Below the pieces are notes generated by a model. That model ran no database searches and was not told the DNA's origin. It was given only the letters and a program-made list of their open reading frames with translations. Position numbers and translations under genes: made by a program. 64,000 nucleotides of DNA from Gluconobacter cadivus. GTDB taxonomy: Bacteria; Pseudomonadota; Alphaproteobacteria; Acetobacterales; Acetobacteraceae. Below, in pieces: positions 8,543-25,619 of the stretch. Position 1 is the stretch's first letter; the number at the start of each line of letters is the position of its first letter. Location: NCBI RefSeq assembly GCF_015244745.1, contig NZ_JABCQI010000008.1:124001-188000 (forward strand), read 5' to 3'.

Positions 8543-8547
8543 ATCCC

Positions 8548-11288: not shown

Positions 11289-11306
11289 TCCTCTTCATCA
11301 CTGACA

Positions 11307-11328
11307 AACCGCCTCCGGGCGGTTTTTT
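11307..11328 (+). terminator. Intrinsic terminator closing the tail operon
   Basis: CCGCC and GGCGG arms around a short loop are followed by six T residues, 20 nt after the spike gene stop. It belongs to a series of similar hairpins in this region (12,128; 12,685; 13,107). Confidence 0.85.
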
Positions 11329-11339
11329 ATGGATAAACC

Positions 11340-11678: not shown

Positions 11679-11680
11679 GA

Positions 11681-11953: not shown

Positions 11954-12127
11954 TGGAACGAGCCTTTAATTGCGAACAATGATCGATTAATAACCTTATC
12001 TTATTTTCTTGTAAAAAAATATGTAAAAATTTTCCTGAGGAAACGTTCTATATCCGCTTTTCGTCTCAATTTGTTGAGCTGCTTGTGATTGTTAAGTAGT
12101 CACAAAGCACCTATCTAAACCTCCTCC

Positions 12128-12154
12128 CAAAGCCGCCCATCCGGGCGGCTTTTT
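12128..12154 (+). terminator. Intrinsic terminator upstream of endolysin gene
   Basis: GCCGCCC and GGGCGGC arms followed by seven T residues. It ends transcription coming from the AT-rich patch and lies 17 nt before the endolysin start. Confidence 0.85.
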
Positions 12155-12170
12155 TTATGGAAAACCCCTA

Positions 12171-12674
12171 ATGCATAACATCGCCATCGTTCTAGCCACG
12201 GCGCTACTGCGGCGCCCAGGGTTCGAGGGCTTTTGCGCAACGCCCTACGTCTGTCCGGCGGGATACTGGACGATCGGGTATGGCAGCCGCTGGCTGGCCA
12301 ACGGACAGCCCGTCACGGCCCGGACCCCTCCTATCGATCGGACTGCTGCTGACAGTCTCCTGCTCCAGACCGTGACGACGCTCGATGCCGCGCTGTCCCG
12401 CCTTGTCCATGTGCCGCTGTCGGACGTCCAGCGTGCGGCCCTGCTGTCCTGGCAGTACAATGTCGGGACAGCCGCCGTCGAAAGCTCGAGCCTACTGCGC
12501 AAGCTGAATACCGCAGATTATGCCGGCGCAGCCGACGAACTGCTGCGCTGGGATAAGGCCACGGTGCGCGGCCATCTGGTTGAGCTGCCCGGTCTCGCTA
12601 AACGTCGCGCTTATGAGCGGGATGTCTTTCTCGGAAGGCGATCCGTACCAACGGACACTCTCCTCTCTGCCTAA
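12171..12674 (+). CDS. Phage endolysin, GH24 lysozyme family
   Basis: A 167-residue muramidase that would cleave peptidoglycan at lysis. The active-site signature Glu-x8-(Asp/Cys)-x5-Thr is present as Glu19, Cys28 and Thr34 (FEGF ... YVCPAGYWTIGYGS), with Cys in the middle position, as in a subset of phage lysozymes. LLSWQYNVG and the C-terminal RRAYERDVFL are also typical. The N-terminus is only weakly hydrophobic, so a clear signal-anchor is not evident. A terminator follows, then a holin-like gene. Confidence 0.9.
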   Translation: MHNIAIVLATALLRRPGFEGFCATPYVCPAGYWTIGYGSRWLANGQPVTARTPPIDRTAADSLLLQTVTTLDAALSRLVHVPLSDVQRAALLSWQYNVGTAAVESSSLLRKLNTADYAGAADELLRWDKATVRGHLVELPGLAKRRAYERDVFLGRRSVPTDTLLSA

Positions 12675-12684
12675 AAATCCTGAT

Positions 12685-12706
12685 GCCGCCCCCGAGGCGG
12701 TTTTTT
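12685..12706 (+). terminator. Intrinsic terminator after endolysin
   Basis: CCGCC and GGCGG arms around a short loop, followed by six T residues, just after the endolysin stop. The following gene's ribosome site (TCTGGAGAA) begins a few bases later. Confidence 0.8.
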
Positions 12707-12725
12707 CATATCTGGAGAACTGAAA

Positions 12726-13061
12726 ATGGACTGGACAACCCTGTTCCAGACGGTCCTGCCGTACCTGCCTGCGCGCTATGCGGGCGACATCGTCTCGATC
12801 CTCACTTTCCTGATCGCGGCCGCCGCTCTGGTCATGCGCTTCTGGAAGCCGCCCGCCTCGGGCAGCAAGCTGGCGCTGCTCTACAAGGTCGTTTCCAGCC
12901 TGGCGCAGTCGAAGGGCTGGAACACGAATGCTTATCAGCCCGATGCCAAGGCGCTGATGATCCCGGCCGAGGCCAGCCGCACGATCGAGGCGGCAAAGCT
13001 GGGCCTCGATCCGGCGTCCACCCATCCCCAGGCTGGCGCGCCTCCCAAACCGACCGCCTGA
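12726..13061 (+). CDS. Holin-like small membrane protein
   Basis: A 111-residue protein with an N-terminal hydrophobic segment (ADIVSILTFLIAAAALVMRF region, about residues 19-38) followed by basic residues and a soluble tail. A GGAGAA site lies 8 nt before the ATG. Position directly after the endolysin suggests a lysis role such as a holin. With one obvious membrane segment and no recognised family, this stays inference. Confidence 0.6.
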   Translation: MDWTTLFQTVLPYLPARYAGDIVSILTFLIAAAALVMRFWKPPASGSKLALLYKVVSSLAQSKGWNTNAYQPDAKALMIPAEASRTIEAAKLGLDPASTHPQAGAPPKPTA

Positions 13062-13106
13062 CCCGAAGGAGGCAGGCTCACGCCTGTCAGACCGCTTTTT
13101 CTTCCG

Positions 13107-13129
13107 CCGCCCTCTGAGGCGGTTTTTTT
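13107..13129 (+). terminator. Intrinsic terminator before lipoprotein gene
   Basis: CCGCC and GGCGG arms with a run of seven T residues. The sequence from here through TATGTCTGGAGA to the next ATG recurs almost unchanged on the minus strand at 24,407-24,445. Confidence 0.8.
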
Positions 13130-13144
13130 ATGTCTGGAGACTTC

Positions 13145-13645
13145 ATGCGCAATCGCTTTCTCGCCCTCAGCCTCGGTGCCCTTCTTCTCGGCTCCACGGC
13201 TGCCTGCACCACCACGCCGACCACGGCGACCTTCAACACAGCCGCGCTCAACAACGACGCCACGGCCATCGCCTATGCCGTCCAGGCGATCGAGGGCATT
13301 CCCGAACTGGAAAGCCATCTGTCTGCTGCGGACAAGGCCAAGTTCGACAATTTGGTCGCACAGATCCGCAGCGTGACGGCACAGGTCGCGGCCAACTCCA
13401 ATGGCTCGATTACCGTCGCGACCGGCAAGGACTGGGCCAAGTCACTCGGCACGGATCTCGAAACCCTGCTGGCGATCGCAACGCCGATCGTGAAGGTCTA
13501 TTCGCCCTCGGCTGCCACCTACATGCAGACCGTCCAGGCGATGATTCCGCTGGTCGAGTCTTTGGCCGGTGTCACGGCTGCGCCCTATGCCGCACCTCTC
13601 CAGTCGCCGGAGTTGATCCGCGCCCGGATCTATCAGGGCGTCTGA
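13145..13645 (+). CDS. Phage-encoded lipoprotein
   Basis: A 166-residue protein. I choose the ATG at 13,145 over 13,130 because CTGGAGA lies 7 nt before it and the signal peptide then begins MRNRFLALSLGALLLGSTAA with the lipobox cysteine next. The mature part is Ala/Thr-rich and helical with no recognised domain. Outer-membrane anchoring is expected. Roles such as spanin partner or superinfection exclusion are possible but not shown by the sequence. The start of this gene is duplicated in the decayed remnant at 24,407. Confidence 0.75.
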   Translation: MRNRFLALSLGALLLGSTAACTTTPTTATFNTAALNNDATAIAYAVQAIEGIPELESHLSAADKAKFDNLVAQIRSVTAQVAANSNGSITVATGKDWAKSLGTDLETLLAIATPIVKVYSPSAATYMQTVQAMIPLVESLAGVTAAPYAAPLQSPELIRARIYQGV

Positions 13646-13668
13646 CCATATTCCCGACGTCGGGAAAA

Positions 13669-13702
13669 AGGGGAGCGGCTTCGGCTGCTCCCCTCTTTTT
13701 TT
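13669..13702 (+). terminator. Intrinsic terminator after lipoprotein gene
   Basis: GGGGAGC and GCTCCCC arms capped by a GGCTTCGGCT stem-loop, followed by a T-run. A second palindrome (TTCCCGACGTCGGGAA, 13,651-13,666) lies just before it. Confidence 0.88.
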
Positions 13703-13717
13703 GTTTCCGGAGATCCC

Positions 13718-14470
13718 ATGCAGGACAGAAAACTGGGCAAGCGCGCCCCGAGACATGACCCGCGCACCTATCGCCTCGGCCGGGTGCTGGCCGTGCGTCT
13801 GCCGGCCGTGCCCGAAGCGCGGGACTGGTCGCAGAACGTGCCTTATCAGATGTGGGGTAATGACCGCTTCGGCTGCTGCGCGTTTGCTGCTCACGCGGCC
13901 CTGGTGGCGACCTGGACGAAGGCCGCGCAGAGCCTTGTGATGCTCTCGACCGAAACGGTGCTGGCCAACTACGCAGCGCTGACGGGCTTCGATCCTGATA
14001 CGGGCCAGAATGACAACGGCACCATCCTGCTGGACGAACTCAACGCCTGGCGTCGTAACGGCCTGCTCCGGCCGGGACAGACACGCGATTACCTGACCGC
14101 CTATGGCTCCATCGCGCCGACCGATGTCGTGGGCATCCGCCGTGCCATCGCCTATCTGGGCGGTGTGCTGGCGGGTGTGCAGGTGCCGCAAGGCTTCCTC
14201 GATCTGGGTCTGGGCGAGACCTGGGACTGGGATGCCATCTCCAACCACACGCCTGCGGGCGGGCATGCGATCGCGCTTGTCGGCTACAACCCGGACGGCG
14301 TGTTCTTCAACACCTGGGGCACGCGCACCTTTATGCCGTGGGGCACGTTCGTGCGGATCGCGGATGAAGCTTATGGCCTGCTGTCGCGGGAGAATTGGCT
14401 GGGCATTCCCGGCACGGCTCCGACCGGTGAGGACTTCGACGCGCTGCTGGCAGAAGTGAGGGCCGCGTGA
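13718..14470 (+). CDS. Papain-like cysteine peptidase-fold protein
   Basis: A 250-residue protein with the order of a C1-type peptidase. A cysteine pair in GNDRFGCCAFAAHAA (Cys53/Cys54) occupies the nucleophile position, His183 lies in AGGHAIALVGYN and Asn198 in FFNTWG. No signal peptide is visible. It could be a virion-associated or cytoplasmic peptidase; whether it is active is unknown. It is preceded by a CGGAGATC ribosome site. Its last 35 codons are duplicated, with a frameshift, in the remnant at 24,211-24,407. Confidence 0.7.
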   Translation: MQDRKLGKRAPRHDPRTYRLGRVLAVRLPAVPEARDWSQNVPYQMWGNDRFGCCAFAAHAALVATWTKAAQSLVMLSTETVLANYAALTGFDPDTGQNDNGTILLDELNAWRRNGLLRPGQTRDYLTAYGSIAPTDVVGIRRAIAYLGGVLAGVQVPQGFLDLGLGETWDWDAISNHTPAGGHAIALVGYNPDGVFFNTWGTRTFMPWGTFVRIADEAYGLLSRENWLGIPGTAPTGEDFDALLAEVRAA

Positions 14471-14558
14471 ATAACGAAAGAAATCCGCGCCTCTTTCCCA
14501 CTATGCGAAAGGCCAAGAGAGGCTTTCGCGTCGCAATGCCGCCAGAAGCGAGGGCTGC

Positions 14559-16361
14559 ATGACCACGGTTCACAATCTCACGCCGTCCCCGCTGCGGACG
14601 GTGACGCTCCAGTCCTGCACCGGCCTGTTTGCCCAGGTGATGTGGACGCCGAAATCCTCGGCCGACTGTCTGGACTATGTGCTGGACTTCTCCACCCTGC
14701 TGGCTGGCACAGGCGACACGCTGACCGCGATCCGCTCCGCCGTCGTCACGACGGCCCCGGGTGGGCAATATGACCTCAAGGTCATGTGGTCGGCCGTGGC
14801 CGGGACACTGGTCGTGGCGTTCCTCGCCAGCGGGCAGCCGAACACGGCACAGAAGGTCCTCTTTGAAATCACGACCCAGCAGGGCCGCGTCTATTCCGTG
14901 ATGGCTGTTCTTCAGATCACGGCGCTGACCGTGGCGACCGCCCCGCCATCTGACTTCCCGGCCGACACGCTGACGAACGGCAAGGTGCTGATTGCCGGCA
15001 TCGAGGCACTGCCCTCCGGGTATTCCTCAAACGGCCGCGTTGTGATGGCGACAGAAGACGCCGCTCCCGTGGGCACGCCGTCGTTCGAGAGCGTGACAGC
15101 CGGGACGTATTCCGGAGACGGTTCGGGGCTGAATGTCACGTCAGGTGGCAAAGCCCAGACCATCGGTCAGTGGATTGCGGCACTGTCTTCGGGCGGGACA
15201 CAGGGCGTCGGCGTCAAGTCGATTAACGTCATGCAGGGGGCGGTCACGGCAGGCCAGCCGTCGACGGTAACTCTGACCGCCACGCTCACGGATGGCACGA
15301 CCACGGCTCCGGCCATATTCGAAGCACCTGCGGGGGCTGTCGGCGCTACAGGTCCTCAAGGCGCGCCCGGGGCGAAGGGGGACACTGGAGCGACAGGCGC
15401 CACGGGAGCGGACGGCAAAGACGGAGCTAACGGAACGACCGGCGCGGATGGCGTCGGGATTGCGTCCGTCGCAGTAACTCAAGGCGCGGTGACGGCAGGG
15501 CAACCCTCTACCGTGACACTGACCGCTACGATGACCAACGGGGCAACGGCTCCAGGAGTCTCGTTCAGTGCTCCAGCCGGGGCGGCTGGTTCAGACGCTG
15601 ACGTGACGGCGACGAATATCGAAACCGCGCTTGGGTATACGCCTGCGAATGGGGCAAATTACTTTCCACTCGCAATCGACAACACCAAAGATTCTTCGGG
15701 CAATTACAACCTCCCGGCTGTAGTGGCTACGAACTCTGGTTTCGATAACTCTGGTGGGTTGTTCACTCTGGGTTATGCTGACGACCCGGTCATTCAGATC
15801 GGGATGTATAAAGGATACTTCGGAGAAAATTCCGTCATTATCCGGTCCATGACCAGTCAGCCCGTTGGCATCATCATCAGTAATCAGGATGGATCGGGTA
15901 CAAGCGTCAGCGCACACAGGCTTCCCACAGGTGACGGCGCAACGCAGTCGAGCTGTATAACAGTGGATGGTCGTCTTGGTGGCGCCACAGGTGCTTATTA
16001 CTTCACCAATCAGGACAACAGTGGCGGAAACTACTGGAAGATCCAAGCCAACACACAGGATACTTCTGATGGTTGGCCGGATGATTTGCAGATCTTTGCG
16101 GCTGTGAACGGGAATGCGAGTTGGCAGACTACGCCTGCCGTCTCCTTTTCCGCTAAAACCAATCAAGCCACTCTGGCGGCAGAGCCTCTCGTTCTGGCTT
16201 ACAACGCCTACACCTTTGCTACATTACCGACGTCACCCGTTGCATGGCAGCGCGTTGTCGTAACGGACAAGGCCATCGGCTCTGGCGCTCAGGGTGTCAT
16301 GGCGATGTGGAACCCGAACACGAAGGCCTGGACAGGTCTGGGCGGGGAGACGCTGGTATGA
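14559..16361 (+). CDS. Collagen-like phage tail fibre (copy 1)
   Basis: A 600-residue modular fibre. Residues 1-125 form a tail-docking domain (NLTPSPLRTVTLQSCTG, then DCLDYVLDFSTLLAGTG). Two related beta segments (QGAVTAGQPSTVTLTAT) flank a Gly-x-Y collagen-like stretch of about 12 triplets near residues 265-300. A variable region follows, then a conserved C-terminal tip (LVLAYNAYTFATLPTSPVAW). Ends and docking domain are nearly identical to the inverted copy at 22,434-24,209, while the middle differs, as expected of receptor-binding variation. Its stop overlaps the next start (ATGA). Confidence 0.85.
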   Translation: MTTVHNLTPSPLRTVTLQSCTGLFAQVMWTPKSSADCLDYVLDFSTLLAGTGDTLTAIRSAVVTTAPGGQYDLKVMWSAVAGTLVVAFLASGQPNTAQKVLFEITTQQGRVYSVMAVLQITALTVATAPPSDFPADTLTNGKVLIAGIEALPSGYSSNGRVVMATEDAAPVGTPSFESVTAGTYSGDGSGLNVTSGGKAQTIGQWIAALSSGGTQGVGVKSINVMQGAVTAGQPSTVTLTATLTDGTTTAPAIFEAPAGAVGATGPQGAPGAKGDTGATGATGADGKDGANGTTGADGVGIASVAVTQGAVTAGQPSTVTLTATMTNGATAPGVSFSAPAGAAGSDADVTATNIETALGYTPANGANYFPLAIDNTKDSSGNYNLPAVVATNSGFDNSGGLFTLGYADDPVIQIGMYKGYFGENSVIIRSMTSQPVGIIISNQDGSGTSVSAHRLPTGDGATQSSCITVDGRLGGATGAYYFTNQDNSGGNYWKIQANTQDTSDGWPDDLQIFAAVNGNASWQTTPAVSFSAKTNQATLAAEPLVLAYNAYTFATLPTSPVAWQRVVVTDKAIGSGAQGVMAMWNPNTKAWTGLGGETLV

Positions 16362-16957
16362 GGGGGCTGCTGCTCTGCGGGCTTCTGGCCCTCTCGGCCT
16401 GCTCGGCCGGATCCGTGTCGCCCGTCACGATCAGTCAGGCCATTGCCGGTGTCCAGGCGGATCTGACGAAGGCCGGTGTTGTGAGCGTCTCGGGCGTGCA
16501 GCACTGGACGCCCGATCAGGCTGCCCGGTTCGATGCCAACGTCCGGGCGCTCCAGTGCGCGCAGCAGACGTCTGATCCGGTCGTGGCCATGATTGCCGGG
16601 CCAGTGACGATGGATCTGTCCGGCAGCTTCAGCCAGTCGGGATCGTTCTCTGTTTCAGCGTCGTCAGCTCTGCCGGTCTTCGGGCTCCAAGCCGATGCCA
16701 GCCGAACGAAAGGCCAGACCCTGAACGTGCCCGTCCAGTTCGTACCGCTGTCGGCTCTGGCGGATGCCGAGGCTGGGCGGGAGGTCGGTTATGCTGGAGC
16801 GCTGCTCGGGCAGAATGATGTCGTGCGGGAGGGGGTGGCTGCTCGGATTGAGACAGACCGGACGGCACTGGCAGCGCATGTCGAGGTGCTGATCTCGAAT
16901 GTCGCGCGCTGCCTTGAAACGAGAGTCCGGCCATTCGTAGGCGTTAAGAAGGGATAG
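16358..16957 (+). CDS. Fibre-coupled lipoprotein (copy 1)
   Basis: A 199-residue protein whose ATG overlaps the fibre stop (ATGA), so it is translationally coupled to the receptor-binding protein. The longer frame from 16,244 is an upstream extension inside the fibre gene. The signal peptide MRGLLLCGLLALSACSAG has a lipobox at Cys15. The mature part is conserved with the copy at 21,835-22,437. Function unknown; coupling to a fibre suggests a host-surface or fibre-related role such as receptor masking, which is inference. Confidence 0.75.
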   Translation: MRGLLLCGLLALSACSAGSVSPVTISQAIAGVQADLTKAGVVSVSGVQHWTPDQAARFDANVRALQCAQQTSDPVVAMIAGPVTMDLSGSFSQSGSFSVSASSALPVFGLQADASRTKGQTLNVPVQFVPLSALADAEAGREVGYAGALLGQNDVVREGVAARIETDRTALAAHVEVLISNVARCLETRVRPFVGVKKG

Positions 16958-17062
16958 GAATGGACGCTAGGGAGCGGGCATATTCGGGCAGGGCCGGAAA
17001 GCTTATCCACCAGCATACCGTATCAAAACAATCTAATTATAAATATATTTTTATAATAATAT

Positions 17063-17950
17063 TTATTTTATTTTCCGATATTTTCTTTTTCTCCTTTTAA
17101 ATTCTTTCATCATTATTTTTTCTGAATTAACAGCAGTTATAAATATTAATGGTATGATTGCAGAAATCCTCAAAAATCTTATTATATTATTGCCTGGCCC
17201 TCCGCCCCTCACTACCATTCCACACAGTTTTGTTACGCCATCGTAAGCGGAAAATACAGGTGACCCGCTGAACCCATTAATGGGAAATAGTACCGGTTTG
17301 GGGTTTGTTACCCTAACCTCTGTTAATGCACCATTATCATTTATGTTTGCGCGTTCGCATATCAAACTCCTTTGATCTAAAACAATGCCTTCTTTTTCGT
17401 AATCTATTGTGTTGAAAGCTTCTGGATATCCTGTAATTAAAAAAAGAAAACATTTTCTTATATTAATCTCTTTTTCTACATGGATGTCATCCAAACCTAT
17501 TTTTCTTACATCTATCTTAAATACATCTGTATCCCCATCAAATGCGTTTGAGTCTGCTTCAAATATAGCTACATCCGAAACATCCTCATCATCATATATC
17601 GCAATATAATCCTCAACATTCTGAATCGGATGATAAGCGATCACAGAAACCCAATCTTGGTCGGTGAGTTTTTCTCTATTTCTTGTAATTCTGCGCTTTA
17701 ATATTCTGATTTTATCCAATGAGTCTGCATCAATTGTCTTGGTGAGCCTATTCGATATGACATGCAATGCAGTTATGATGAAGTATCTCTTCCTTAGTCC
17801 GTATGACCATTTTATTATAAAGCAAGTACCCCCACGCCATGTATCAATAAGATCTCCGGTGCCGTTATTATATATAATTGGCCGGCAACATCTTTCAGCC
17901 CTATTTATGTGCCTTTTATTTAATTTATCTTTTCTTGATATATTGTTCAT
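17063..17950 (-). CDS. AT-rich trypsin-like serine peptidase domain protein
   Basis: A 295-residue protein in strikingly AT-rich DNA, opposite to the phage genes. The chymotrypsin-fold triad is visible: His63 in YFIITALHVIS, Asp126 in SDVAIF and Ser228 in INGFSGSPVF. No signal peptide is seen, so it is probably cytoplasmic; the C-terminus is very basic (KEFKRRKRKYRKIK). Base and codon use unlike its neighbours indicate recent acquisition. Such orphan proteases occur in phage and defence cargo, but a defence role here is inference. Confidence 0.75.
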   Translation of the reverse strand: MNNISRKDKLNKRHINRAERCCRPIIYNNGTGDLIDTWRGGTCFIIKWSYGLRKRYFIITALHVISNRLTKTIDADSLDKIRILKRRITRNREKLTDQDWVSVIAYHPIQNVEDYIAIYDDEDVSDVAIFEADSNAFDGDTDVFKIDVRKIGLDDIHVEKEINIRKCFLFLITGYPEAFNTIDYEKEGIVLDQRSLICERANINDNGALTEVRVTNPKPVLFPINGFSGSPVFSAYDGVTKLCGMVVRGGGPGNNIIRFLRISAIIPLIFITAVNSEKIMMKEFKRRKRKYRKIK

Positions 17951-18086
17951 TTGTTAAACCTTTACTTTATATTACTTTATCATATTGGTTAATATGTAAG
18001 TTATTTCTTAAATCCATCTAATAATCTAGACTTTAAAATTTATACACTGCGTGTCAATTCCTGAGATGGGCCGATGTAAGAGAAAG

Positions 18087-19346
18087 TTACCAACTCCTGG
18101 CCTTCACGATCTCCTCCAACCGGGTCGTGTAACGAGCTGACAACAGGGACTGTCGCGGCGACCATGTCCGCTTCAGTCCCGTTGATCCCGGCCGGAGTGT
18201 CCCGCTTCCAAAACGGGCGTTCACCGCATCCAGTGCGGCCATGACCGTGGCGGACTGGACCGGATCCCGGAATGCGAACATCTGGCCCTGACTGCCAGCA
18301 GGGCGGAGATCAGACAGAATTACCCCTGCCTTGAAATACCGATAGCCCGGAAGCCAGATAGCGCAGCCGAGCGCTGTAGCGTGTCGGATCAGATCCCGGG
18401 CGTCAGACGTCGGCTCGATCGTGACGGCCGCGTGCTTTGCGTACCAGGGATCGCCATTATGCGGATTGGTCTGCATCAGAACGGAGAGATGCGCCGCTTC
18501 CAGTCCATCTTCTCTCAATTTCTCCGCAGCCCTGTTTGCATAGTGTGCAATGGCCTCGCGGATCTCCTCCCATTTCAGCAGTAGGCGCCCGAACGTTCGG
18601 GTTGAGGCAATGCTTTTGCGGGTGGCAGCGATATCTGACAGGGGCAGGCACGACTGGCCGCGCAGTTCGGCCTGAACCCGGCCGCCTACGACTGTCAGCA
18701 TCTGACGCACAGTCTTTGCATCGAGGGCTACGAAATCGGCAATCGTCTCGATGCCTGCTCCCAACAGCTTGTGCTTCGTCTGTCGGCCGATACCCCAGAC
18801 TTCATCGATACTTGTCCGGCAATACCAGTCCTGACGCACGACCGGGTCTGTCAGGTCACACAGGCCGTCCAGTTCTGCGTGATCCTTGGCGAGACCATTC
18901 GCCAGCTTGGCGATCGTCTTGGTCGGCCCCCAGCCGATACAGGTGGGAATCTTCGCGTGATTGGCCACGTCCTGGCGGATCTGCCGGCAGCGCTCATGCA
19001 GATCTCCGGGCAGGTCACTTAGATCGAGAAACATCTCGTCGATCGAATATGGCTCTACGGCTGGCAGGCGCTCTGCCAGGACCTGATACATCCGCCGCGA
19101 CATGTCGGCATACAACGCATAGTTTGAGGAGTACCAGACGACCGGCCGGCTTTCGGGACGTTTGCGGGCAATGTGCCAGGCGTCTCCCATTTTGACGCCA
19201 AGCGCCTTGGCCTCCCGGGTCCGCGCAATGGCGCAGCCGTCATTGTTGCTGAGGACCACAACCGGTTTGTGCTTCAGGCGAGGCTCAAACGCGCGCTGGC
19301 AGGAACAGTAAAACGAATTGCCGTCGATCAGGCCGTAGACGCGCAT
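18087..19346 (-). CDS. umuC: Error-prone DNA polymerase V catalytic subunit UmuC
   Basis: A 419-residue Y-family polymerase that copies past DNA lesions when bound by UmuD'. The metal-binding motifs are present: YGLIDGNSFYCSCQ at the N-terminus and YSIDEMFLDLSDL near residue 100. They are followed by IGWGPTKTIAKLAN and the helix-hairpin-helix VWGIGRQTKHKLLGAGI; the C-terminal little-finger region is complete. The ATG at 19,346 overlaps the umuD stop (TGATG), so the two are coupled under the LexA site at 19,747. Confidence 0.95.
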   Translation of the reverse strand: MRVYGLIDGNSFYCSCQRAFEPRLKHKPVVVLSNNDGCAIARTREAKALGVKMGDAWHIARKRPESRPVVWYSSNYALYADMSRRMYQVLAERLPAVEPYSIDEMFLDLSDLPGDLHERCRQIRQDVANHAKIPTCIGWGPTKTIAKLANGLAKDHAELDGLCDLTDPVVRQDWYCRTSIDEVWGIGRQTKHKLLGAGIETIADFVALDAKTVRQMLTVVGGRVQAELRGQSCLPLSDIAATRKSIASTRTFGRLLLKWEEIREAIAHYANRAAEKLREDGLEAAHLSVLMQTNPHNGDPWYAKHAAVTIEPTSDARDLIRHATALGCAIWLPGYRYFKAGVILSDLRPAGSQGQMFAFRDPVQSATVMAALDAVNARFGSGTLRPGSTGLKRTWSPRQSLLSARYTTRLEEIVKARSW

Positions 19347-19726
19347 CACACGTCCGTTCGGACCAGGCCGGTGGCCACAGCCCAGATTGCTACATCCGTG
19401 TCATCATCGACCTGGACTGGGGAAGCTCGGGGAGAAGACGATCGCAGCCACCATTCTCCAGCTCGCTGGGTCAGTTCACAGACCCGCAGCTCGTCGCCGA
19501 CGCTGGCCACCACTACAACACCTGCCCGGGGTGCCACGGCCGAATCCACGACCAGGATGTCGCCATGCCGGATGGCGCGACCAAGAAGGGCATCGCCTTC
19601 CACACGGACCGGATATCGGCTGGGCTGTCGCAGATCGAGAGCGGTCGACATCAGGTCGATCGTGCCTTCGATATTGTCCCCTACGGGGGATGCGAAGCCG
19701 GTCGTACGGTCGCCTTGGTAGTTCAT
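19346..19726 (-). CDS. umuD: UmuD'-like polymerase V subunit lacking the Ser-Lys catalytic dyad
   Basis: A 126-residue S24-family protein. I choose the ATG at 19,726, which has GGAGG at the right distance; that GGAGG lies inside the longer frame that begins at 19,741. Aligned to E. coli UmuD by FASPVGDNIEGTIDL and HGDILVVDSAV, the nucleophile Ser60 is replaced by Ala46 (VEGDALLG) and the general base Lys97 by Cys83 (LRVCEL), with the same 37-residue spacing. Only nine residues precede the GF that follows the normal cleavage point. It therefore looks like a ready-made UmuD' that needs no RecA-stimulated self-cleavage. Confidence 0.88.
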   Translation of the reverse strand: MNYQGDRTTGFASPVGDNIEGTIDLMSTALDLRQPSRYPVRVEGDALLGRAIRHGDILVVDSAVAPRAGVVVVASVGDELRVCELTQRAGEWWLRSSSPRASPVQVDDDTDVAIWAVATGLVRTDV

Positions 19727-19746
19727 ATTTCTGGCCTCCATAACGA

Positions 19747-19761
19747 GAACAGAAAGAGAAC
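19747..19761 (-). promoter_or_regulatory. LexA operator (SOS box) of umuDC
   Basis: GAAC-AGAAAGA-GAAC on the plus strand, i.e. GTTC-N7-GTTC on the coding strand: an exact match to the alphaproteobacterial LexA site. It lies about 20 bp upstream of the umuD start, where it would block transcription until DNA damage. Confidence 0.88.
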
Positions 19762-19943
19762 AAGACAGAGCGCGTCAATGATTCTCTGATGACACGGGAT
19801 AAATTTGGGCGAGGGCAGGGGACGTTGGCTTGGCGAGGAGTCCTATGACGTCGAAAGAAAGACCTTAATGCAAAAAGTAGGCAATCCCATCTGATGGGGC
19901 CAAAAAAATAGACTTCTATCAATTACTTAGAGGAAAATTTAAC

Positions 19944-19993
19944 CTGCCTTCACACGGCAGGGGTCACAGGTTCAATCCCTGTCGCGCCCACCA
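19944..19993 (+). pseudogene. 3' half of a tRNA-Val(CAC) gene, probable phage attachment-site scar
   Basis: The anticodon arm (CTGCC, loop TTCACAC, GGCAG), variable loop, T-arm (ACAGG, TTCAATC, CCTGT), acceptor 3' strand CGCGCCC, discriminator A and encoded CCA are all present. The expected 5' half (acceptor 5' strand, D-arm) is absent, and AT-rich DNA precedes the arm. Integrases commonly recombine in the 3' half of tRNA genes, so this is best read as one attachment site of the prophage, with the intact tRNA at the other end outside the window. Confidence 0.8.
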
Positions 19994-20160
19994 TCCGAAA
20001 TTCTTGGAAATCCTATCTCATATATTGCGATATAAACTCAGGTTGCGTTGGCAAGAAACAGTATAGTTTGTTCTGCATCCGTTCAGCAGATTTACTTTTC
20101 CCTGTTAAATCGATTTCCAGCCTCATCATCCTGAAATATTCACTGTATTCGCAGACAATT

Positions 20161-20778
20161 TTAGAGATCTTGTACCAGCAAAAGGGTTGCGAGAAAAAGC
20201 ACTACGCACCCAATAACAAGATCCTGAACCTTCCATGATTTCGGCGTAGCGAATATTGGCTGTAAAAAACGTGCACCATAGCCTAATGCACCAAACCATA
20301 GAAAACTGGCAGATGCCGCCCCGGCTGCAAAAAAGGGCCTAAGGGGAAGTGGCTGCGCTGTCGACGCTGTGCCCATCAAGAGAACTGTATCGAGATAGAC
20401 GTGCGGATTAAGCCAGGTAAACGCTGCGACTGAGGTCAATGCTTTCGACAAAGCAACAGAATCGCTTTGAGTGACTGTCATGCTCTCCGAGAGAGTAACC
20501 AGACGCAGCGTTCTTAGGCCATACCAGAACAGAAACCCAGCACCGGCGAGTGTAAATCCTTTCGCGATTTGTGGGAAAGTTTCCAGCAGAGCCCCCATTC
20601 CACTCACCCCCGCGATAATCAGGATAGCATCTGAAAAGCCGCAGAAAAGGACAATGGGACCGACATGCTCTTTCTTCAGACCCTGTCGAAGAACGAACAG
20701 ATTCTGAGCGCCGATCGCGACAATCAGTGAGGCAGAAAGCGCAAAACCGGAAAAAAAGCTTGTAATGAAAGACATCAT
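20161..20778 (-). CDS. argO: LysE/ArgO family amino-acid exporter
   Basis: A 205-residue membrane protein with about six hydrophobic segments. The N-terminal signature LIVAIGAQNLFVLRQGL and AFTWLNPHVYLDTVLLMG are typical of LysE/ArgO exporters of lysine or arginine. It is divergently transcribed from an ArgP-type LysR regulator 70-75 bp away, the classic arrangement in which ArgP with a basic amino acid activates the exporter. The exact substrate cannot be read from the sequence. Confidence 0.9.
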   Translation of the reverse strand: MMSFITSFFSGFALSASLIVAIGAQNLFVLRQGLKKEHVGPIVLFCGFSDAILIIAGVSGMGALLETFPQIAKGFTLAGAGFLFWYGLRTLRLVTLSESMTVTQSDSVALSKALTSVAAFTWLNPHVYLDTVLLMGTASTAQPLPLRPFFAAGAASASFLWFGALGYGARFLQPIFATPKSWKVQDLVIGCVVLFLATLLLVQDL

Positions 20779-20851
20779 TCAGCCTCCTTACGGAGCGACT
20801 TCGAAAAAGGAAAACTTGTTTTTCTTATCCTAATGAAGCAATCCTTTATTG

Positions 20852-21754
20852 GTGTTGGATTATAATGCTCTTGCGGCCGTAAGCGCTGTCATCCGGGAAG
20901 GCTCCTTCGACAGTGCGGCCAGAAAATTAAACATTACGGCTTCTGCTGTTTCTCAGCGCGTCAGAGGATACGAAGACCGGCTGGGTGCTCTGCTGATTAT
21001 TCGCGGCCAACCGTGCAGACCGACAGAACTGGGCCAAGCCCTGGTGACACATCTCGACAGGGTTCATCTGCTCGAAGCGGAAATCCCTCATCTTTCCTTC
21101 GCGTCAGGGCCTTTGTCTCCACCTGAGGTTACTCTGAGAATCGCCGTAAATGCTGATAGTCTTGCAACGTGGTTTCCAGGTGCAATCTCGCGCTTTGCTA
21201 TGAAAGAAGGAATTTGTTTGGACCTTCTTGTCGAGGATGAAACCTGTACAGCTGACCGCTTAAGATCAGGCGAGGTTATCGCTGCAATCACCGCCCAAAC
21301 AGAGCCAGTCCCGGGATGCAGCTCCATCCAGCTCGGGGGCATGCAGTATGTTGCCTGCGCTACGCCTGATTTTGCAGCGCAATACTTCAGAACCGGAGGT
21401 ACCGCAGCTGAGTTTCAGGAAGCACCGTGCATATGCTTTGACCGCGACGATGGTCTGGAGGCGCGATGGTTGCATGCTCTGCACAAGACAGATCTACCGC
21501 GGCGGATACATTACGTCCCCTCTACGCACGGTTTTCTGGATTTTACACTCAATAGTTTTGGATGGGGGTTACAGCCGCACGCCTTGGTGGACAGGTATCT
21601 ATCTCAGGGAAATCTGATTGAAATCGTTCCTGGCCACCGTCTTACCGTAGATCTCCACTGGGTCATACCGAGATTCAAGAATAAACTGTTGAACGATCTT
21701 ACTCTTCACTTGAAAAATGAATGCGCCATATATTCTTTAATACCTGGAATATAG
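20852..21754 (+). CDS. argP: ArgP (LysG/IciA)-type LysR transcriptional regulator
   Basis: About 300 residues. The N-terminal winged helix-turn-helix reads LDYNALAAVSAVIREGSFDS and then AARKLNITASAVSQRVRGYE, and is followed by a LysR effector domain. Length and the RPTELGQAL motif fit ArgP, which senses lysine and arginine. The start is uncertain: TTG at 20,849, GTG at 20,852 and TTG at 20,855 are all possible; I prefer GTG. The gene is paired with the exporter on the other strand, whose promoter it probably controls. Confidence 0.88.
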   Translation: MLDYNALAAVSAVIREGSFDSAARKLNITASAVSQRVRGYEDRLGALLIIRGQPCRPTELGQALVTHLDRVHLLEAEIPHLSFASGPLSPPEVTLRIAVNADSLATWFPGAISRFAMKEGICLDLLVEDETCTADRLRSGEVIAAITAQTEPVPGCSSIQLGGMQYVACATPDFAAQYFRTGGTAAEFQEAPCICFDRDDGLEARWLHALHKTDLPRRIHYVPSTHGFLDFTLNSFGWGLQPHALVDRYLSQGNLIEIVPGHRLTVDLHWVIPRFKNKLLNDLTLHLKNECAIYSLIPGI

Positions 21755-21834
21755 TTTTCAAAAATAATATATTCACCTTGATAGTTCATCTTTCTGATCT
21801 TTAGGATTAGGGATGATCTGAAAGATCCCGAAAA

Positions 21835-22437
21835 TCACTTTCCGCGAACACCAACAAATGGATGATCTGATCCGGGCGGGCAGGGGGAACCATATCCACC
21901 GATCAACAGCTGGACATGCGTAGCCAACGCGGATCGATCTGCTTCGATCCGCGTTGCGGCTTCAACACGGACAGCGTCGTTTTGCCCCAGAAGGACTCCA
22001 ACATATCCGACCTCACGTCCAGCCTCGGCATCAGGCAACGCCGACAGAGGCACGAACTGGACCGGAAGACTTAGAGTTTGGCCCTTCGTTCGGCTGGCAT
22101 CGGCCTGCAAACCAAAAACAGGGGTAAAGCTTGACGTCGAGACGGAGAACGACCCCGACTGACTAAACGTGCCGGACAGATCCATCGTCACCGGCCCGGC
22201 AATCATGGCCACGACCGGATCGGACGTGTTCTGCGCGCACTGAAGCGCCCGTACATTGGCGTCGAACCGGGCGGCCTGATTGGCCGTCCAATGCTGTACA
22301 CCCGACACACTGACCACACCGGCTTTCGTCAGATCCGCCTGCACCCCGGCAATGGCCTGACTGATTGTGACGGGCGCGAAGGACCCGGCAGAACAGCCAG
22401 AAAGAGCAAGCATTCCACAGAGCGCCAGCCTCCTCAT
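21835..22437 (-). CDS. Fibre-coupled lipoprotein (copy 2)
   Basis: A 200-residue lipoprotein (signal MRRLALCGMLALSGCSAG) very similar to copy 1 at 16,358-16,957 over most of its length (for example SDPVVAMIAGPVTMDLSG). The C-terminal 20 residues diverge, with a Gly/Pro-rich segment before the shared PFVGV end. The start overlaps the fibre stop (ATGA), as in copy 1, so the coupling is conserved. The reading frame is intact although the module around it has decayed. Confidence 0.75.
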   Translation of the reverse strand: MRRLALCGMLALSGCSAGSFAPVTISQAIAGVQADLTKAGVVSVSGVQHWTANQAARFDANVRALQCAQNTSDPVVAMIAGPVTMDLSGTFSQSGSFSVSTSSFTPVFGLQADASRTKGQTLSLPVQFVPLSALPDAEAGREVGYVGVLLGQNDAVRVEAATRIEADRSALATHVQLLIGGYGSPCPPGSDHPFVGVRGK

Positions 22438-24209
22438 ACCAGCGCCTCTCCACCCAGACCTGTCCACGCCTTCGTATTCGGGTTCCACATCGCCATGACA
22501 CCCTGAGCGCCAGAGCCGATGGCTTTGTCCGTCACGACAGCACGCTGCCACGCAACAGGGGATGTCGGCAGTGTGGCGAAGGTGTAGGCGTTATAAGCCA
22601 GAACAAGAGGTTCTACTGCCAGAGTGGCCTGGTTCGTGGCGCGGGTAATGGATACAGCGGGCGCGGCCAGATAAGCAGAACTGTCGGAAGATGCGGCTGT
22701 AATATTGAAGGTAGCAGCGCCATTTTGCGTAGATGGGCACGATATCTTCCAATAAACGCCTTCCCAATCCTTTTCGATCCACGCAATACCGCTCTCGCCC
22801 CAAGTGCCATCTATACCAAACCACGGCGAGGCAAGCGCAGTGTTTCCACTGGAATTATGCGTAAATAGATATCCTTGATAGCCGTCCTTGTCCTGTAACG
22901 TCAGGCAGGGCGGGTTATTGTCTTTTGATACTATTGTAAATCTATTGTAGTTGTTATTGGAGTTAAATCCAACATTAATACTGTGGTTATTCCCGATATC
23001 CCACATTGAAAACAAAGAACCGTCCGAGCCTGCATCGGAGGGATGCGTTAAAGCCGGAATATTTGAAATCGATGCCATTTGTAACGGCAGATAATTCGCG
23101 CCGTTCGCCGCAGTGTATCCTAAGGCGGTATTAATCGCCGCCGCTGTCAGATCCGTCGTACTTCCGCCTGAACCCGGCGCACCTGCCGGTGCTTGAAAAG
23201 AAACTGCTGGAGCGGTTGCACCATTGCTCATTGTCGCTGTGAGCGTAACCGTGGATGCCTGACCCGCTACGACCGTCCCCTGACTTACGGCGACGGACGC
23301 TATTCCTATGCCGGACGCGCCGACAGGACCAGCCGCACCTGTTGCGCCCGTATCGCCTTTCGGTCCAGCTGCACCTGTAGCACCTGTAGCACCTGTAGCA
23401 CCTGTAGCACCTGTAGCACCTGTAGCACCTGTAGCACCGGCTGGAGCCACGAATGTTGTCGGTGCCGTCGTCGTGCCATCAGTGAGAGTAGCCGTCAGCG
23501 TTACGGTCGAAGGCTGGCCGGTTGTGACAGGGTCCTGCGTCACATCAATCGATTTGACACCGACACTCTGCCCCCCCCCCGAGGACAGCGATGCAACCCA
23601 TTGGTCGATGGTCTGGGCTTTGCCGCCGGACGTGACATTCAGTCCGGAACCATCACCGGCATATGTCCCGGCCGTCACGCTCTTGAAAGATGGCGTGCCA
23701 ACAGGGGCGGCATCCTCAGTCGCCATGACGACCTGACCGTTCGACGAATAACCCGAGGGCAGCGCCTCCACGCCCGCAATCAGCACGTTGCCGTTCGTCA
23801 GGGTGTCGGCAGGGAAATCCGAGGGGGGAGCGGTCGCAGCGGTGAGATCCGTGATCTGCAAGACGGCCATTACGGAGTAGACCCGGCCCTGCTGCGTCGT
23901 GATCTCGAAGAGGATTTTCTGCGTTGTGTCCGGCTGGCCGCTGGCGAGAAATGCCACCACCATCGTCCCGGCGACGGCACTCCACATGACCGTGAGAGCA
24001 TAATCTCCACTTGCCGTAATAACCGTGGCCGATCTGATGGCGACAAGCGTATCACCTGTCCCGGCCAGAAGCGCCGAGAAATCCAGCGAATAATCCAGAC
24101 AGTCAGCAGACGACTTCGGACAAAAAGTGACTTGAGAGACGACTCCGTTGCATCCCTGCAAAGTAATCGTCCGCAGCGGAGATGGGGTAAGATTATGAAT
24201 TGTGGTCAT
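22434..24209 (-). CDS. Collagen-like phage tail fibre (copy 2)
   Basis: A 591-residue paralogue of the 14,559-16,361 fibre in inverted orientation. The docking domain (NLTPSPLRTITLQGCNG) and tip (LVLAYNAYTFATLPTSPVAW) are nearly identical to copy 1, while about residues 370-530 are unrelated. The collagen-like part is dominated by seven identical Gly-Ala-Thr triplets encoded by a perfect 9-bp repeat, and a G10 run lies just before it. GAGGACTGC precedes the ATG. The frame is intact in this sequence. It probably comes from a related prophage or an inverted duplication. Confidence 0.82.
   Translation of the reverse strand: MTTIHNLTPSPLRTITLQGCNGVVSQVTFCPKSSADCLDYSLDFSALLAGTGDTLVAIRSATVITASGDYALTVMWSAVAGTMVVAFLASGQPDTTQKILFEITTQQGRVYSVMAVLQITDLTAATAPPSDFPADTLTNGNVLIAGVEALPSGYSSNGQVVMATEDAAPVGTPSFKSVTAGTYAGDGSGLNVTSGGKAQTIDQWVASLSSGGGQSVGVKSIDVTQDPVTTGQPSTVTLTATLTDGTTTAPTTFVAPAGATGATGATGATGATGATGATGAAGPKGDTGATGAAGPVGASGIGIASVAVSQGTVVAGQASTVTLTATMSNGATAPAVSFQAPAGAPGSGGSTTDLTAAAINTALGYTAANGANYLPLQMASISNIPALTHPSDAGSDGSLFSMWDIGNNHSINVGFNSNNNYNRFTIVSKDNNPPCLTLQDKDGYQGYLFTHNSSGNTALASPWFGIDGTWGESGIAWIEKDWEGVYWKISCPSTQNGAATFNITAASSDSSAYLAAPAVSITRATNQATLAVEPLVLAYNAYTFATLPTSPVAWQRAVVTDKAIGSGAQGVMAMWNPNTKAWTGLGGEALV
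23372..23438 (-). repeat. 9-bp perfect tandem repeat in fibre copy 2
   Basis: Seven full copies of CACCTGTAG (plus a CACC partial) on the plus strand, coding for Gly-Ala-Thr triplets on the minus strand. The unit length is a multiple of three, so slippage would change fibre length without breaking the frame. Confidence 0.95.
23571..23580 (-). repeat. Ten-base G homopolymer (C10 on plus strand) in fibre copy 2
   Basis: Ten consecutive C on the plus strand form G10 in the coding strand within Ser-Ser-Gly-Gly-Gly-Gln. The equivalent site of copy 1 reads TCGGGCGGGACACAG and has no such run. Runs of this length are prone to slippage and would switch the fibre gene off by frameshift. Confidence 0.9.
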
Positions 24210-24210
24210 G

Positions 24211-24407
24211 CAGTCCTCATGTCGTTCAGAAACACGTCGAAATTTTCAGCGTTCCGGCGTCCTACCCGGAAGACCCAGCCAGCTCTGCTGCCGCGGCAGA
24301 CCATAGGCTTCATCGCCCCTCAACTGATCTGTGGTCGGAGTTTGCATTCCACCGAAACGGCCGACAGACGCATGGGCGGCACCGAATACGAAGAAGCGGT
24401 TGCGCAT
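24211..24407 (-). pseudogene. Fused remnant: lipoprotein start joined to papain-like peptidase end
   Basis: The ATG at 24,407 begins MRNRF, as in the 13,145 lipoprotein, behind the same TCTGGAGA leader. The frame then changes and from about codon 30 matches the peptidase C-terminus (DEAYGL, WLGLPG), but stops at 24,246. A one-base frame shift restores the match (ENFDVFLNDMRTA against EDFDALLAEVRAA) up to the fibre start. It is the scar of a deletion that removed most of both genes. A short 53-codon ORF remains, probably without function. Confidence 0.8.
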
Positions 24408-24420
24408 GTATCTCCAGACA

Positions 24421-24445
24421 TAAAAAAACCGCCCAAAAGGCGGTT
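24421..24445 (-). terminator. Intrinsic terminator at the head of the inverted module
   Basis: On the minus strand, CCGCC and GGCGG arms are followed by seven T residues. It is the counterpart of the terminator at 13,107-13,129. Confidence 0.75.
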
Positions 24446-24761
24446 AGGAGAGTTAGGTTGATGGGGCAGCACGGAAAGCATCTTCATAGAGAAGCAAAGT
24501 CGCGCGCACCGAGGAAAATCATGTGTCAATCCGGCACTTTGCGCAAACTGCCTGTCTTATTAGAATAAGCGGTTGAACCGTTATCATTGGCTATAGCCAC
24601 GCAATTCCCCCCTATAACGCACAACATTCCTTCTCCTGCCTTCATATGTAAGAAAACCATAGGATGCATGCGGCTATCGCGTTATGAAGATTTAACAGTT
24701 TTTCCAGAAAGCCGATCATGAACGCACTGACACCCTCAATTCCGACTGGTTCATACAATAC
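24446..24761. other. Intergenic region between phage remnant and SDR gene
   Basis: About 316 bases, turning AT-rich towards the right. I see no convincing ORF, RNA gene or terminator here. It probably contains the promoter of the SDR gene and marks the border between phage remnant and host DNA. Confidence 0.5.
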
Positions 24762-25619
24762 ATGAAGCTTTTTTCCTTCAAAAAGGGAGTGTCAGTACCA
24801 TCTTGCGCCGTCATGACGGGTGGAACAGGCGGAATTGGATGTGAAATTGCAGGGCTTCTTCTGGAAAAAGGATGGGATGTTCTTCTACTGACGCGCCAAC
24901 CACGCAAAGCTGAAGAACAGATTTCCAGCAGAAACGGTCGGTTTGAGGCTGTTTATTGTGACCTTACCAAACCTGAAGATCTGGAGGCCATCAGTGCCAC
25001 CATTCTGGAAAGAAAAAAAAGTATCGGACTATTGATTCATTGCGCGGGAAAAATACAGCCCGAGCTGACCAAAGATCTCACTCGGCACAGCCTTGAAGAA
25101 CAGATGGCGATCAATCTGACATCACCAATACTCATGACCAGTCAGTTGCTGCCAAACCTGTCCCCGGCTTCACATATCGTCTTCGTCAATTCCATTGCTG
25201 GCGTCATGCCCCTTCAGGGAAGTGCCGTGTATAGCGCAACAAAGTTCGGCCTCAGGGGTTTTGCACGGTCATTGGCGTTGGAGTTCAAAGCCGGAACAAT
25301 CCGAGTTTCGTCTATCTTTCTTGGCGCCGTCGACACTCCAATGCTTGAACAGGAAACACGGGATGGTGGATCCGTACTCAACTTTGTCAACAAGCCTCTT
25401 CCGGCGCGGCATGTGGCCAGCCTGATCATCCGGACCAGCGAAGGAAGGGGACGTGAAATCTTTCTACCTGCGCTGGATGGGATTTTCGCTCATGCATGCC
25501 TGATCATGCCTTGGCTCCTACGAATGACCTCCCCGATTCTAGAAAAAATCGGCCATATTGGACTGCGCCGCTTTCAAAAAAACAAACAACACTTCCATAA
25601 ATCTAGAAATTATTCCTGA
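24762..25619 (+). CDS. Short-chain dehydrogenase/reductase (SDR) family protein
   Basis: A 285-residue NAD(P)-dependent oxidoreductase. The cofactor motif TGGTGGIG lies near residue 20, followed by HCAG (in place of NNAG), a serine in FVNSIAGVMPLQGSA and the catalytic pair YSATK. The substrate is not predictable. The C-terminus has an extra hydrophobic and then basic stretch (IMPWLLRMTSPIL, later RFQKNKQHFHKS), which could associate with membrane lipids, as in some SDRs acting on lipids. It stands alone and is AT-richer than the core genes downstream. Confidence 0.85.
   Translation: MKLFSFKKGVSVPSCAVMTGGTGGIGCEIAGLLLEKGWDVLLLTRQPRKAEEQISSRNGRFEAVYCDLTKPEDLEAISATILERKKSIGLLIHCAGKIQPELTKDLTRHSLEEQMAINLTSPILMTSQLLPNLSPASHIVFVNSIAGVMPLQGSAVYSATKFGLRGFARSLALEFKAGTIRVSSIFLGAVDTPMLEQETRDGGSVLNFVNKPLPARHVASLIIRTSEGRGREIFLPALDGIFAHACLIMPWLLRMTSPILEKIGHIGLRRFQKNKQHFHKSRNYS

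What the first reader, a model, noticed from the sequence alone, without database searches (positions are those of the whole stretch)
14559..24209. Inverted pair of tail-fibre/lipoprotein modules flanking umuDC and the tRNA scar
Two collagen-like fibre genes, each with an ATGA-coupled lipoprotein, face each other across about 4.9 kb. Docking domain, tip and lipoprotein are strongly conserved, while the fibre middle differs. Such inverted homology can recombine, either inverting the segment (moving the attachment scar and umuDC) or swapping fibre middles by gene conversion, which would change host range.
Basis: partly seen in the sequence, partly recalled or inferred. Interest (0 to 1): 0.72.

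Follow-up and report, generated by a model that had tools for sequence, protein, structure and literature searches.

The report
Inverted prophage tail-fibre modules in Gluconobacter
Two related phage tail-fibre genes probably face each other because two phages inserted in opposite directions at the same tRNA gene, one since decayed but with its fibre kept intact, and in a sister species such a leftover fibre shares its presumed receptor-binding part with a resident phage.

Summary
In detail: two fibre genes, each ATGA-coupled to a lipoprotein-like gene, face each other around umuDC and a 53-nt tRNA-Val 3' fragment (68.9% identical over 2351 nt; longest exact run 47 nt). The genus is Gluconobacter. 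Module 1 is the right end of an apparently complete 45.8-kb prophage in tRNA-Val(CAC); the "scar" is its attR. Module 2 lies outside it, a decayed remnant found at the same site in G. albidus. Relatives show phages in this tRNA in both polarities (a kondonii genome holds two, int to int), so sequential opposite-polarity integration best explains the pair. Inversion is not supported: attL and attR are direct repeats, and LIP and umuC are convergent in 10 of 10 places (7 genomic, 3 contigs that may be sister strains). Exchange is supported, but elsewhere: in G. cerevisiae an orphan and a resident prophage fibre share a 98.7%-identical middle, while the same-site G. kondonii orphan has another (41.4%). 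Orphan docking domains show low dN/dS (0.08, 0.13) behind a conserved promoter-like leader. New is the persistence of orphan modules as apparent partners in exchange; exchange with defective prophages itself is known.

The parts
13718..14470 (+). papain-like peptidase-type phage gene (pept), the usual upstream neighbour of fibre or LIP; phrog_19005
   Evidence: homologues in 22 of 26 Gluconobacter genomes; the peptidase label is my reading, no Pfam family reached its cut-off
14559..16361 (+). fibre 1 (prophage-borne): Gp77 docking domain, collagen-like stretch, hinge, variable middle, conserved tip
16358..16957 (+). LIP1, lipoprotein-like, ATGA-coupled to fibre 1; phrog_28078, unknown function
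17063..17950 (-). trypsin-like protein in a variable cargo slot between LIP and umuC (weak Trypsin_2 and LmuA hits)
   Evidence: the same slot in G. kondonii holds an OLD-like ATPase
18087..19349 (-). umuC-like Y-family polymerase gene of the prophage
19346..19741 (-). umuD-like S24 peptidase gene of the prophage
19944..19996 (+). 53-nt 3' fragment of tRNA-Val(CAC): attR; direct repeat of C8:98201-98253, which overlaps the 3' part of the intact tRNA-Val gene
20161..20778 (-). LysE-type exporter gene, host side
20849..21754 (+). LysR regulator gene, host side
21835..22437 (-). LIP2, lipoprotein-like, ATGA-coupled to fibre 2
22434..24209 (-). fibre 2 (orphan module): second docking type, middle nearest to the G. 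kondonii orphan among the pairs compared
24210..24426 (-). decayed remnant: 5' end of the lip13130 homologue fused to the 3' end of the pept homologue
   Evidence: (reading of the sequence)
24427..24445 (-). intrinsic-terminator-like hairpin in the leader
24455..24529 (-). conserved promoter-like leader (P-box TTGACA...CGGTGCGCGC...CTATGA), shared with orphan modules of other species
   Evidence: function inferred, and a sigma-70 consensus scan does not report it
24762..25619 (+). SDR host gene, neighbour of the tRNA-Val integration site

Best explanation
tRNA-Val(CAC) is an integration hotspot entered by related myovirus-like phages in two opposite polarities. An older phage of one polarity left module 2, whose neighbouring phage genes decayed while its leader, fibre and lipoprotein gene stayed intact. 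A phage of the other polarity, carrying module 1 and umuDC, later integrated between the tRNA and that remnant, so the two modules face each other. The segment does not act as an inversion switch. The conserved docking/hinge and tip are shoulders across which fibre middles are exchanged by homologous recombination between prophages and orphan modules. Shown: anatomy, att polarity, a remnant at the same site in a second species, both polarities in relatives, a shared near-identical middle in G. cerevisiae, low dN/dS. Inferred: order of events, polarity of the lost phage, that exchange alters receptor binding, that the orphan module is expressed.
For: Intact tRNA-Val at C8:98176-98250 with a direct 53-nt copy at window 19944-19996; integrase at the tRNA end; undisturbed site in G017, tRNA-Val and SDR 190 bp apart. 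Opposite polarity in G008, G023 and the second prophage of G016, where the LIP or umuDC end abuts the intact tRNA and the integrase lies about 110 bp from a distal fragment; G016 C6 holds both polarities int to int. Module 2 has the orientation expected of the opposite-polarity class, and G. albidus has a fibre+LIP module at the same site with an intact tRNA-Val beyond it and no homologue of the window prophage's genes hit in between. Exchange: G. cerevisiae orphan against prophage fibre, 76.4% over docking columns 0-150 (105 differences in 444 nt), 96.9% over 150-240 (8 in 255), 98.7% over the middle (6 in 456), 95.1% over the tip (9 in 183), while the same-site orphans of G. kondonii and G. 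cerevisiae are 81.0% in docking 0-150 but 41.4% in the middle. Low dN/dS: docking 0.08 and 0.13, LIP2 0.10.
Against: No att copy remains on the SDR side of module 2, so its polarity is inferred from gene order. The docking tree does not group module 2 with the G. albidus orphan with support, and the lip/pept deletions of the two differ. The breakpoint statistic was 0 of 300 permutations for all five pairs tested, modules 1 and 2 included, so it shows uneven divergence and not exchange by itself; the exchange rests on the near-identical tract. dS near 1 is close to saturation, and low dN/dS could reflect overwriting from active phage copies. The docking dS at the orphan sites is above that of the host genes (0.76 against 0.27-0.49; 1.09 against 0.67-0.87), and in the G. 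kondonii/G. cerevisiae pair docking dN/dS (0.13) is above all four host neighbours (0.02-0.09). The exchange is documented in one genome and its direction is unknown. Modules 1 and 2 show no recent exchange in the middle. Low-confidence structure models gave no test of the receptor-binding role.
Confidence: 0.72

Rival explanations
1. The pair works as a homology-driven inversion switch: recombination between the inverted modules flips umuDC and the att fragment and alternates the fibres.
For: Inverted homology with a 47-nt exact run, above published minimum pairing lengths (passage of PMC3945230). The att core also stands in the other sense relative to umuDC in G008 and G023, which on its own could be read as a flip.
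Against: att cores of the window prophage are direct; 10 of 10 places hold LIP and umuC in one orientation; in G008 and G023 the tRNA beside umuDC is the intact one and a diverged integrase sits at the other end, so the whole prophage polarity differs and not the segment; a flip would turn attR against attL and block ordinary excision (inference); no invertase among the annotated genes between.
Confidence: 0.05
2. The history is as above, but module 2 is a dead prophage remnant with no role; its intact reading frames reflect overwriting by related phages, and the fibre mosaicism is ordinary phage-phage recombination before integration.
For: Neighbouring lip and pept genes are truncated; fibre genes are known to be mosaic (PMC13195805 abstract; PMC3945230 abstract and passages); the orphan docking dS exceeds that of the host neighbours.
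Against: A module at the same site in a second species with docking dN/dS 0.08 at dS 1.09 and LIP dN/dS 0.10; the promoter-like leader is conserved across orphan loci at two chromosomal sites while the genes right behind it decayed.
Confidence: 0.35
3. Module 2 arose by duplication and inversion of module 1 within this lineage.
For: The two modules are homologous and inverted.
Against: They are only 68.9% identical; fibre 1 groups with five other phage-borne docking domains (100/99) and fibre 2 does not; G. albidus has the module at that site without a module 1 between it and the tRNA.
Confidence: 0.03
4. Orphan fibre modules belong to a host-kept, dispersed particle system (gene-transfer-agent- or tailocin-like) sharing one promoter type.
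For: In G000 the same leader precedes module 2, a lysis-type cassette, a 948-aa tailspike-like gene and a levansucrase gene.
Against: GTA_TIM (PF13547) in 0 of 26 genomes, the only such family tested; no structural cluster with the leader was seen; one of the four leaders precedes a levansucrase; a weaker match stands in the G008 prophage (score 18.5), so the leader may simply be a phage element.
Confidence: 0.08

Closest known systems
Temperate phages acquiring DNA from defective prophages by relaxed homologous recombination (De Paepe et al. 2014, PMC3945230; abstract and passages read)
   Same: Exchange between a resident defective prophage copy and a phage genome across diverged homology; the published minimum pairing segments (31-34 bp RecA, 23-27 Red-beta) are shorter than the longest run seen here.
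   Different: Here the exchanged part is the fibre middle, and the chromosomal partner is a single fibre (with or without lipoprotein) module held at one site in more than one species; no recombination assay exists. A YqaJ/RecE-like exonuclease is in another prophage of this genome; for the window prophage's left arm I only read its ORFs by eye and recognised none.
Genus-wide recombination of tailocin tail fibres in Pectobacterium (PMC13195805; abstract read)
   Same: Fibre loci at a fixed chromosomal neighbourhood exchange variable parts across a genus by recombination.
   Different: There the fibres sit in a full tailocin cluster; here the orphan modules stand without structural genes.
Site-specific tail-fibre inversion of phages Mu and P1 (recalled; P1 Cin and p15B Min appear only as a title in the PMC3945230 reference list)
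   Same: Inverted arrangement of fibre sequences.
   Different: No invertase among the annotated genes between the modules and no second orientation seen.
Tandem prophages at one attB in Mycobacterium abscessus (PMC9934374; passages read)
   Same: Two prophages accumulate at one attachment site.
   Different: In G. kondonii the two lie int to int; in the window one has decayed to a single module.
Acetobacter temperate phages phiAO1 and phiAP1 (PMC8566455; passages read, start of abstract in a listing)
   Same: Temperate phages of acetic acid bacteria with a distant docking-domain relative (38.9% and 35.9% over 18% and 17% of fibre 1); phiAP1 integrates at a tRNA gene.
   Different: tRNA-Ser rather than tRNA-Val; only the docking part of fibre 1 matched. 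The lipoprotein gene was not searched in the phage collection.

Membership tests
Mu/P1-type invertible tail-fibre segment | both orientations found among isolates | tested here: not met
   10 of 10 places in one orientation, across species and not within one strain
Mu/P1-type invertible tail-fibre segment | invertase gene next to the segment | tested here: not met
   the five annotated genes between the modules are trypsin-like, umuC, umuD, LysE and LysR; only this interval was annotated for it
Mu/P1-type invertible tail-fibre segment | short crossover sites at the segment ends | tested here: inconclusive
   inverted repeats found are gene-length homology plus weak chance-like pairs
Prophage remnant (module 2) | homologues of prophage genes, some truncated | tested here: met
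   lip13130 start fused to pept end; open fibre and LIP frames
Prophage remnant (module 2) | flanking att copies | tested here: not met
   no att copy on the SDR side; the tRNA side is shared with the later prophage
Integrated temperate prophage (module 1) | direct att repeats, integrase, terminase, capsid, tail genes | tested here: met
   terminase and capsid labels are my reading of the proteins, integrase and sheath are by PHROGs; induction not tested
Relaxed recombination with defective prophage | near-identical exchanged tract bounded by diverged sequence | tested here: met
   G. cerevisiae orphan and prophage fibre
Relaxed recombination with defective prophage | dependence on a phage recombinase | not testable with these tools
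   needs a recombination assay; only an exonuclease was found, in another prophage
Rhodobacter/Caulobacter-type gene transfer agent | GTA_TIM (PF13547) protein encoded | tested here: not met
   0 of 26 genomes; among 14 control genomes Caulobacter vibrioides was positive

The most novel reading that the evidence does not exclude
Gluconobacter chromosomes keep a dispersed, leader-tagged archive of phage receptor-binding genes (fibre-lipoprotein modules, a tailspike) that outlives the prophages that brought them, is held by purifying selection, and trades receptor-binding middles with resident prophages; some resident prophages lack this fibre gene and might be served in trans, or orphan fibres might act as decoys in the assembly of incoming relatives.
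Probability: 0.2. Interest if true: 0.75.

Novelty: new variant of a known kind. Interest (0 to 1): 0.45.

Why it matters
It shows how an inverted pair of phage modules can arise without any inversion: two related phages use one tRNA in opposite polarity. It also gives a concrete case where a fibre gene left in the chromosome stays open next to decayed phage genes, sits at the same site in another species, and, for a comparable orphan in a sister species, shares a near-identical presumed receptor-binding part with a resident prophage. If orphan modules are kept because they are used, bacterial genomes hold a working stock of fibre parts, which would bear on how phage specificity diversifies and what hosts gain from prophage debris.

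Tried and rejected
Inversion switch: rejected on att polarity and on 10 of 10 places in one orientation. The 10 places are G000 C8, G016 C6 prophage A, G002 C1, G002 C12 (LIP fragments), G021 C10 (umuC fragment), G023 C3, G010 C34 (LIP fragment), and viral contigs L120, L121, L124 (umuC fragment). L120 prints the same LIP protein as G016 prophage A and may be that strain or a sibling. Left out: G008 C18, with no LIP beside its umuC (its pept and umuC are convergent too), and G000 C11, whose LIP and umuC fragment lie about 17 kb apart.

Duplication of module 1: rejected (68.9% identity, different docking groups).

Gene transfer agent: tested with one family only, 0 of 26.

Structures: AlphaFold models of LIP (mean pLDDT 41.4, 10 sequences) and of the fibre 1 middle and tip (47.5, 8 sequences) were too poor for fold searches, so none was run. 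Solved-structure searches gave two matches for fibre 1, both over its collagen-like stretch, and no credible match for LIP (best E 0.017, a designed protein). LIP has no match in the plasmid collection.

Leader: a sigma-70 consensus scan found no promoter at the module 2 leader; the -35/-10 reading (TCGGTG or TTGGTG, 17 nt, CTATGA or alike) is my own by eye. RNA folds of four leaders gave z-scores of -1.50, -2.23, -0.53 and -2.04, so only the terminator hairpin is claimed. A crude consensus scan scored the module 2 site no higher than two chance sites in the prophage's left arm; the weight-matrix scan separated them, but it covers only sequence held by then and was built from 12 of the sites it finds. 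One search covered 26 genomes: 28 places in 17 genomes, against 1 for the reversed control pattern; the places in G014 and G013 look like chance.

Rows dropped: one search printed only loci from L069 on, longer than 3 kb, with umu hits, plus ten named contigs, and left out gatB, SDR, LysR and HTH rows; one search did not print six loci whose hits one search had listed or shown empty; one search left out LysR rows. The fibre set holds 14 sequences; the docking tree used 13, without the one cut at its N-terminus. Breakpoint tests were run on 5 pairs, sliding profiles on 14 pairs.
Full report
What is there. The window lies in a Gluconobacter genome: its relatives G016, G021, G025, G007 and G019 carry contigs of the same lengths as G. 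kondonii, G. albidus, G. cerevisiae, G. roseus and G. sp. Dm-62 records. Bases 1-19996 are the right part of a prophage. Its core tRNA-Val sequence stands twice in direct orientation, at an intact tRNA-Val(CAC) gene, C8:98176-98250, and as a 53-nt fragment at window 19944-19996, about 45.8 kb apart. The left arm carries an integrase and a tail sheath by PHROGs, a DnaB-type helicase by Pfam, and, by my reading, terminase and capsid genes. Module 1 (pept, fibre 1, LIP1), the trypsin-like gene and umuDC are therefore inside the prophage; LysE, LysR and module 2 are outside.

The two modules. Fibres 1 and 2 share a Gp77 docking domain, collagen-like repeats, a hinge, a variable middle and a conserved tip, and each overlaps a lipoprotein-like gene by ATGA. 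Over 2351 aligned nt they are 68.9% identical, with exact runs of 47 and 29 nt. By region: 74.5% (alignment columns 0-150), 78.0% (150-240), 42.8% (middle, 410-582), 88.4% (tip, 582-648).

Why they are inverted. In G017 tRNA-Val and the SDR gene are 190 bp apart with nothing annotated between. Prophages at tRNA-Val occur in two polarities. In one (window; G016 prophage A; G002 C12, whose other end was not seen) the umuDC end lies at a tRNA fragment. In the other (G008, G016 prophage B at tRNA-Val CAC; G023 at tRNA-Val GAC) the umuDC or LIP end abuts the intact tRNA, and a diverged integrase (62-66% to the window's) lies about 110 bp from a distal fragment. G016 carries both, int to int, in tandem. 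Module 2 has the orientation expected of the second class. In G. albidus a fibre+LIP module stands at the same place beside SDR, with an intact tRNA-Val about 8 kb beyond it on the same contig. Behind the module the lip13130 and pept homologues are reduced to fragments in both species, by different deletions. The simplest history is an old integration in one polarity, decay, and a later integration in the other polarity. No att copy was found on the SDR side of module 2, so the polarity of the lost phage is inferred.

No sign of inversion. In all 10 places where I found LIP and umuC (whole or as fragments) side by side, they are convergent: 7 in whole genomes, 3 in viral contigs, of which one is probably the lineage of a genome already counted. 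The window's att cores are direct. An inversion between the modules would turn attR against attL and block ordinary excision (inference). In G008 and G023 the att core stands in the other sense relative to umuDC; I read this as the opposite polarity of whole prophages, because there the intact tRNA is on the umuDC side and the integrase at the far end.

Exchange of fibre middles. Fourteen fibres were aligned. In G. cerevisiae an orphan fibre (C6) and a prophage fibre (C8) differ at 105 of 444 nt in docking columns 0-150, but at 8 of 255 in 150-240, 6 of 456 in the middle and 9 of 183 in the tip. The orphan at the same chromosomal site in G. kondonii is 81.0% identical to the G. cerevisiae orphan in docking but 41.4% in the middle. 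At the module 2 site, module 2 and the G. albidus orphan are 80.9% identical in docking and 43.6% in the middle, while the module 2 middle is 64.6% identical to that of the G. kondonii orphan, at a different site. In both same-site pairs examined, then, the middle differs far more than the docking part. A breakpoint statistic exceeded 300 of 300 permutations in all five pairs tested, modules 1 and 2 included, so it marks uneven divergence and does not by itself show exchange. The direction of transfer in G. cerevisiae is not known, and the C6 contig ends 840 bp beyond the orphan fibre, so re-sequencing is wanted.

Are the orphans alive? Between same-site orphans, docking dN/dS is 0.08 (dS 1.09) and 0.13 (dS 0.76), and LIP2 0.10 (dS 1.25). 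Neighbouring host genes give 0.063-0.125 at dS 0.67-0.87 in the first pair (three genes) and 0.022-0.090 at dS 0.27-0.49 in the second (four genes). The orphan docking dS is the higher in both pairs, and in the second pair so is its dN/dS, so overwriting from phage copies or weaker constraint is possible. In the docking tree the six phage-borne fibres form one group (100/99), apart from the other seven, which are orphans or of unclear context; module 2 and the G. albidus orphan are not joined with support.

A shared leader. A promoter-like element, TTGAC...GGTGCGCGC...CTAT, precedes the orphan modules at the SDR site, at a second site, and the G. roseus module; at module 2 a terminator-like hairpin follows it. 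A relaxed pattern found 28 places in 17 of 26 genomes against 1 for the reversed control. In G000 the four places precede module 2, a lysis-type cassette, a 948-aa tailspike-like gene and a levansucrase gene. In the loci held by then the weight-matrix scan did not report it near module 1; it did report a weaker match in the G008 prophage (18.5 against 39-47 for the sites it was built from). Its function is inferred.

The fibre is optional. Of 14 places where pept is at least 87% identical to the window's, 6 have the fibre behind pept and 8 do not; in G. kondonii pept runs straight into LIP by ATGA.

Verdict. Observation right, switch interpretation not supported, exchange interpretation supported in a sister species. 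Exchange with defective prophages is a known process (PMC3945230, abstract and passages), as is genus-wide fibre exchange in tailocins (PMC13195805, abstract). No paper on this Gluconobacter case came up among the titles listed (15 of 59; 20 of 68; 12 of 41; 12 of 131; 4 of 4; 1 of 1); that is a limited search.

Noticed in passing
L148 14931-16677; also L149, L151, L153: A chromosomal cassette p12726-lip13130-pept(-LIP) without hits to structural phage genes, beside an M3 peptidase gene in G000. A variant of the same leader was found once each in 14 of 26 genomes, each with a pept hit about 1.1 kb on. No LIP was hit there in G000 and G021.
   Followed up: partly
L068 10399-13245; L164 7406-10252: A 948-aa tailspike-like gene (PHROGs tail) beside an N-formylglutamate amidohydrolase gene in two species, behind the same leader.
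   Followed up: partly
L169 118-1500: A levansucrase (GH68) gene of G000 behind the same phage-type leader.
   Followed up: partly
L060 9347-11267 and L066/L067 against L057: The SDR-HTH-p26106 block between tRNA-Ser and tRNA-Val is inverted in G. kondonii and apparently in G. cerevisiae (split over two contigs) relative to G017, G007 and the window.
   Followed up: no
L047 9174-9385: A group I intron match (47 bits, just below the family cut-off of 50) next to the G. kondonii orphan fibre, perhaps in a tRNA gene; ARAGORN reported no tRNA there.
   Followed up: no
window 17063-17950; L060 13354-15006: The slot between LIP and umuC holds different genes in different prophages: trypsin-like here and in G002 C1, OLD-like ATPase in G. 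kondonii.
   Followed up: partly
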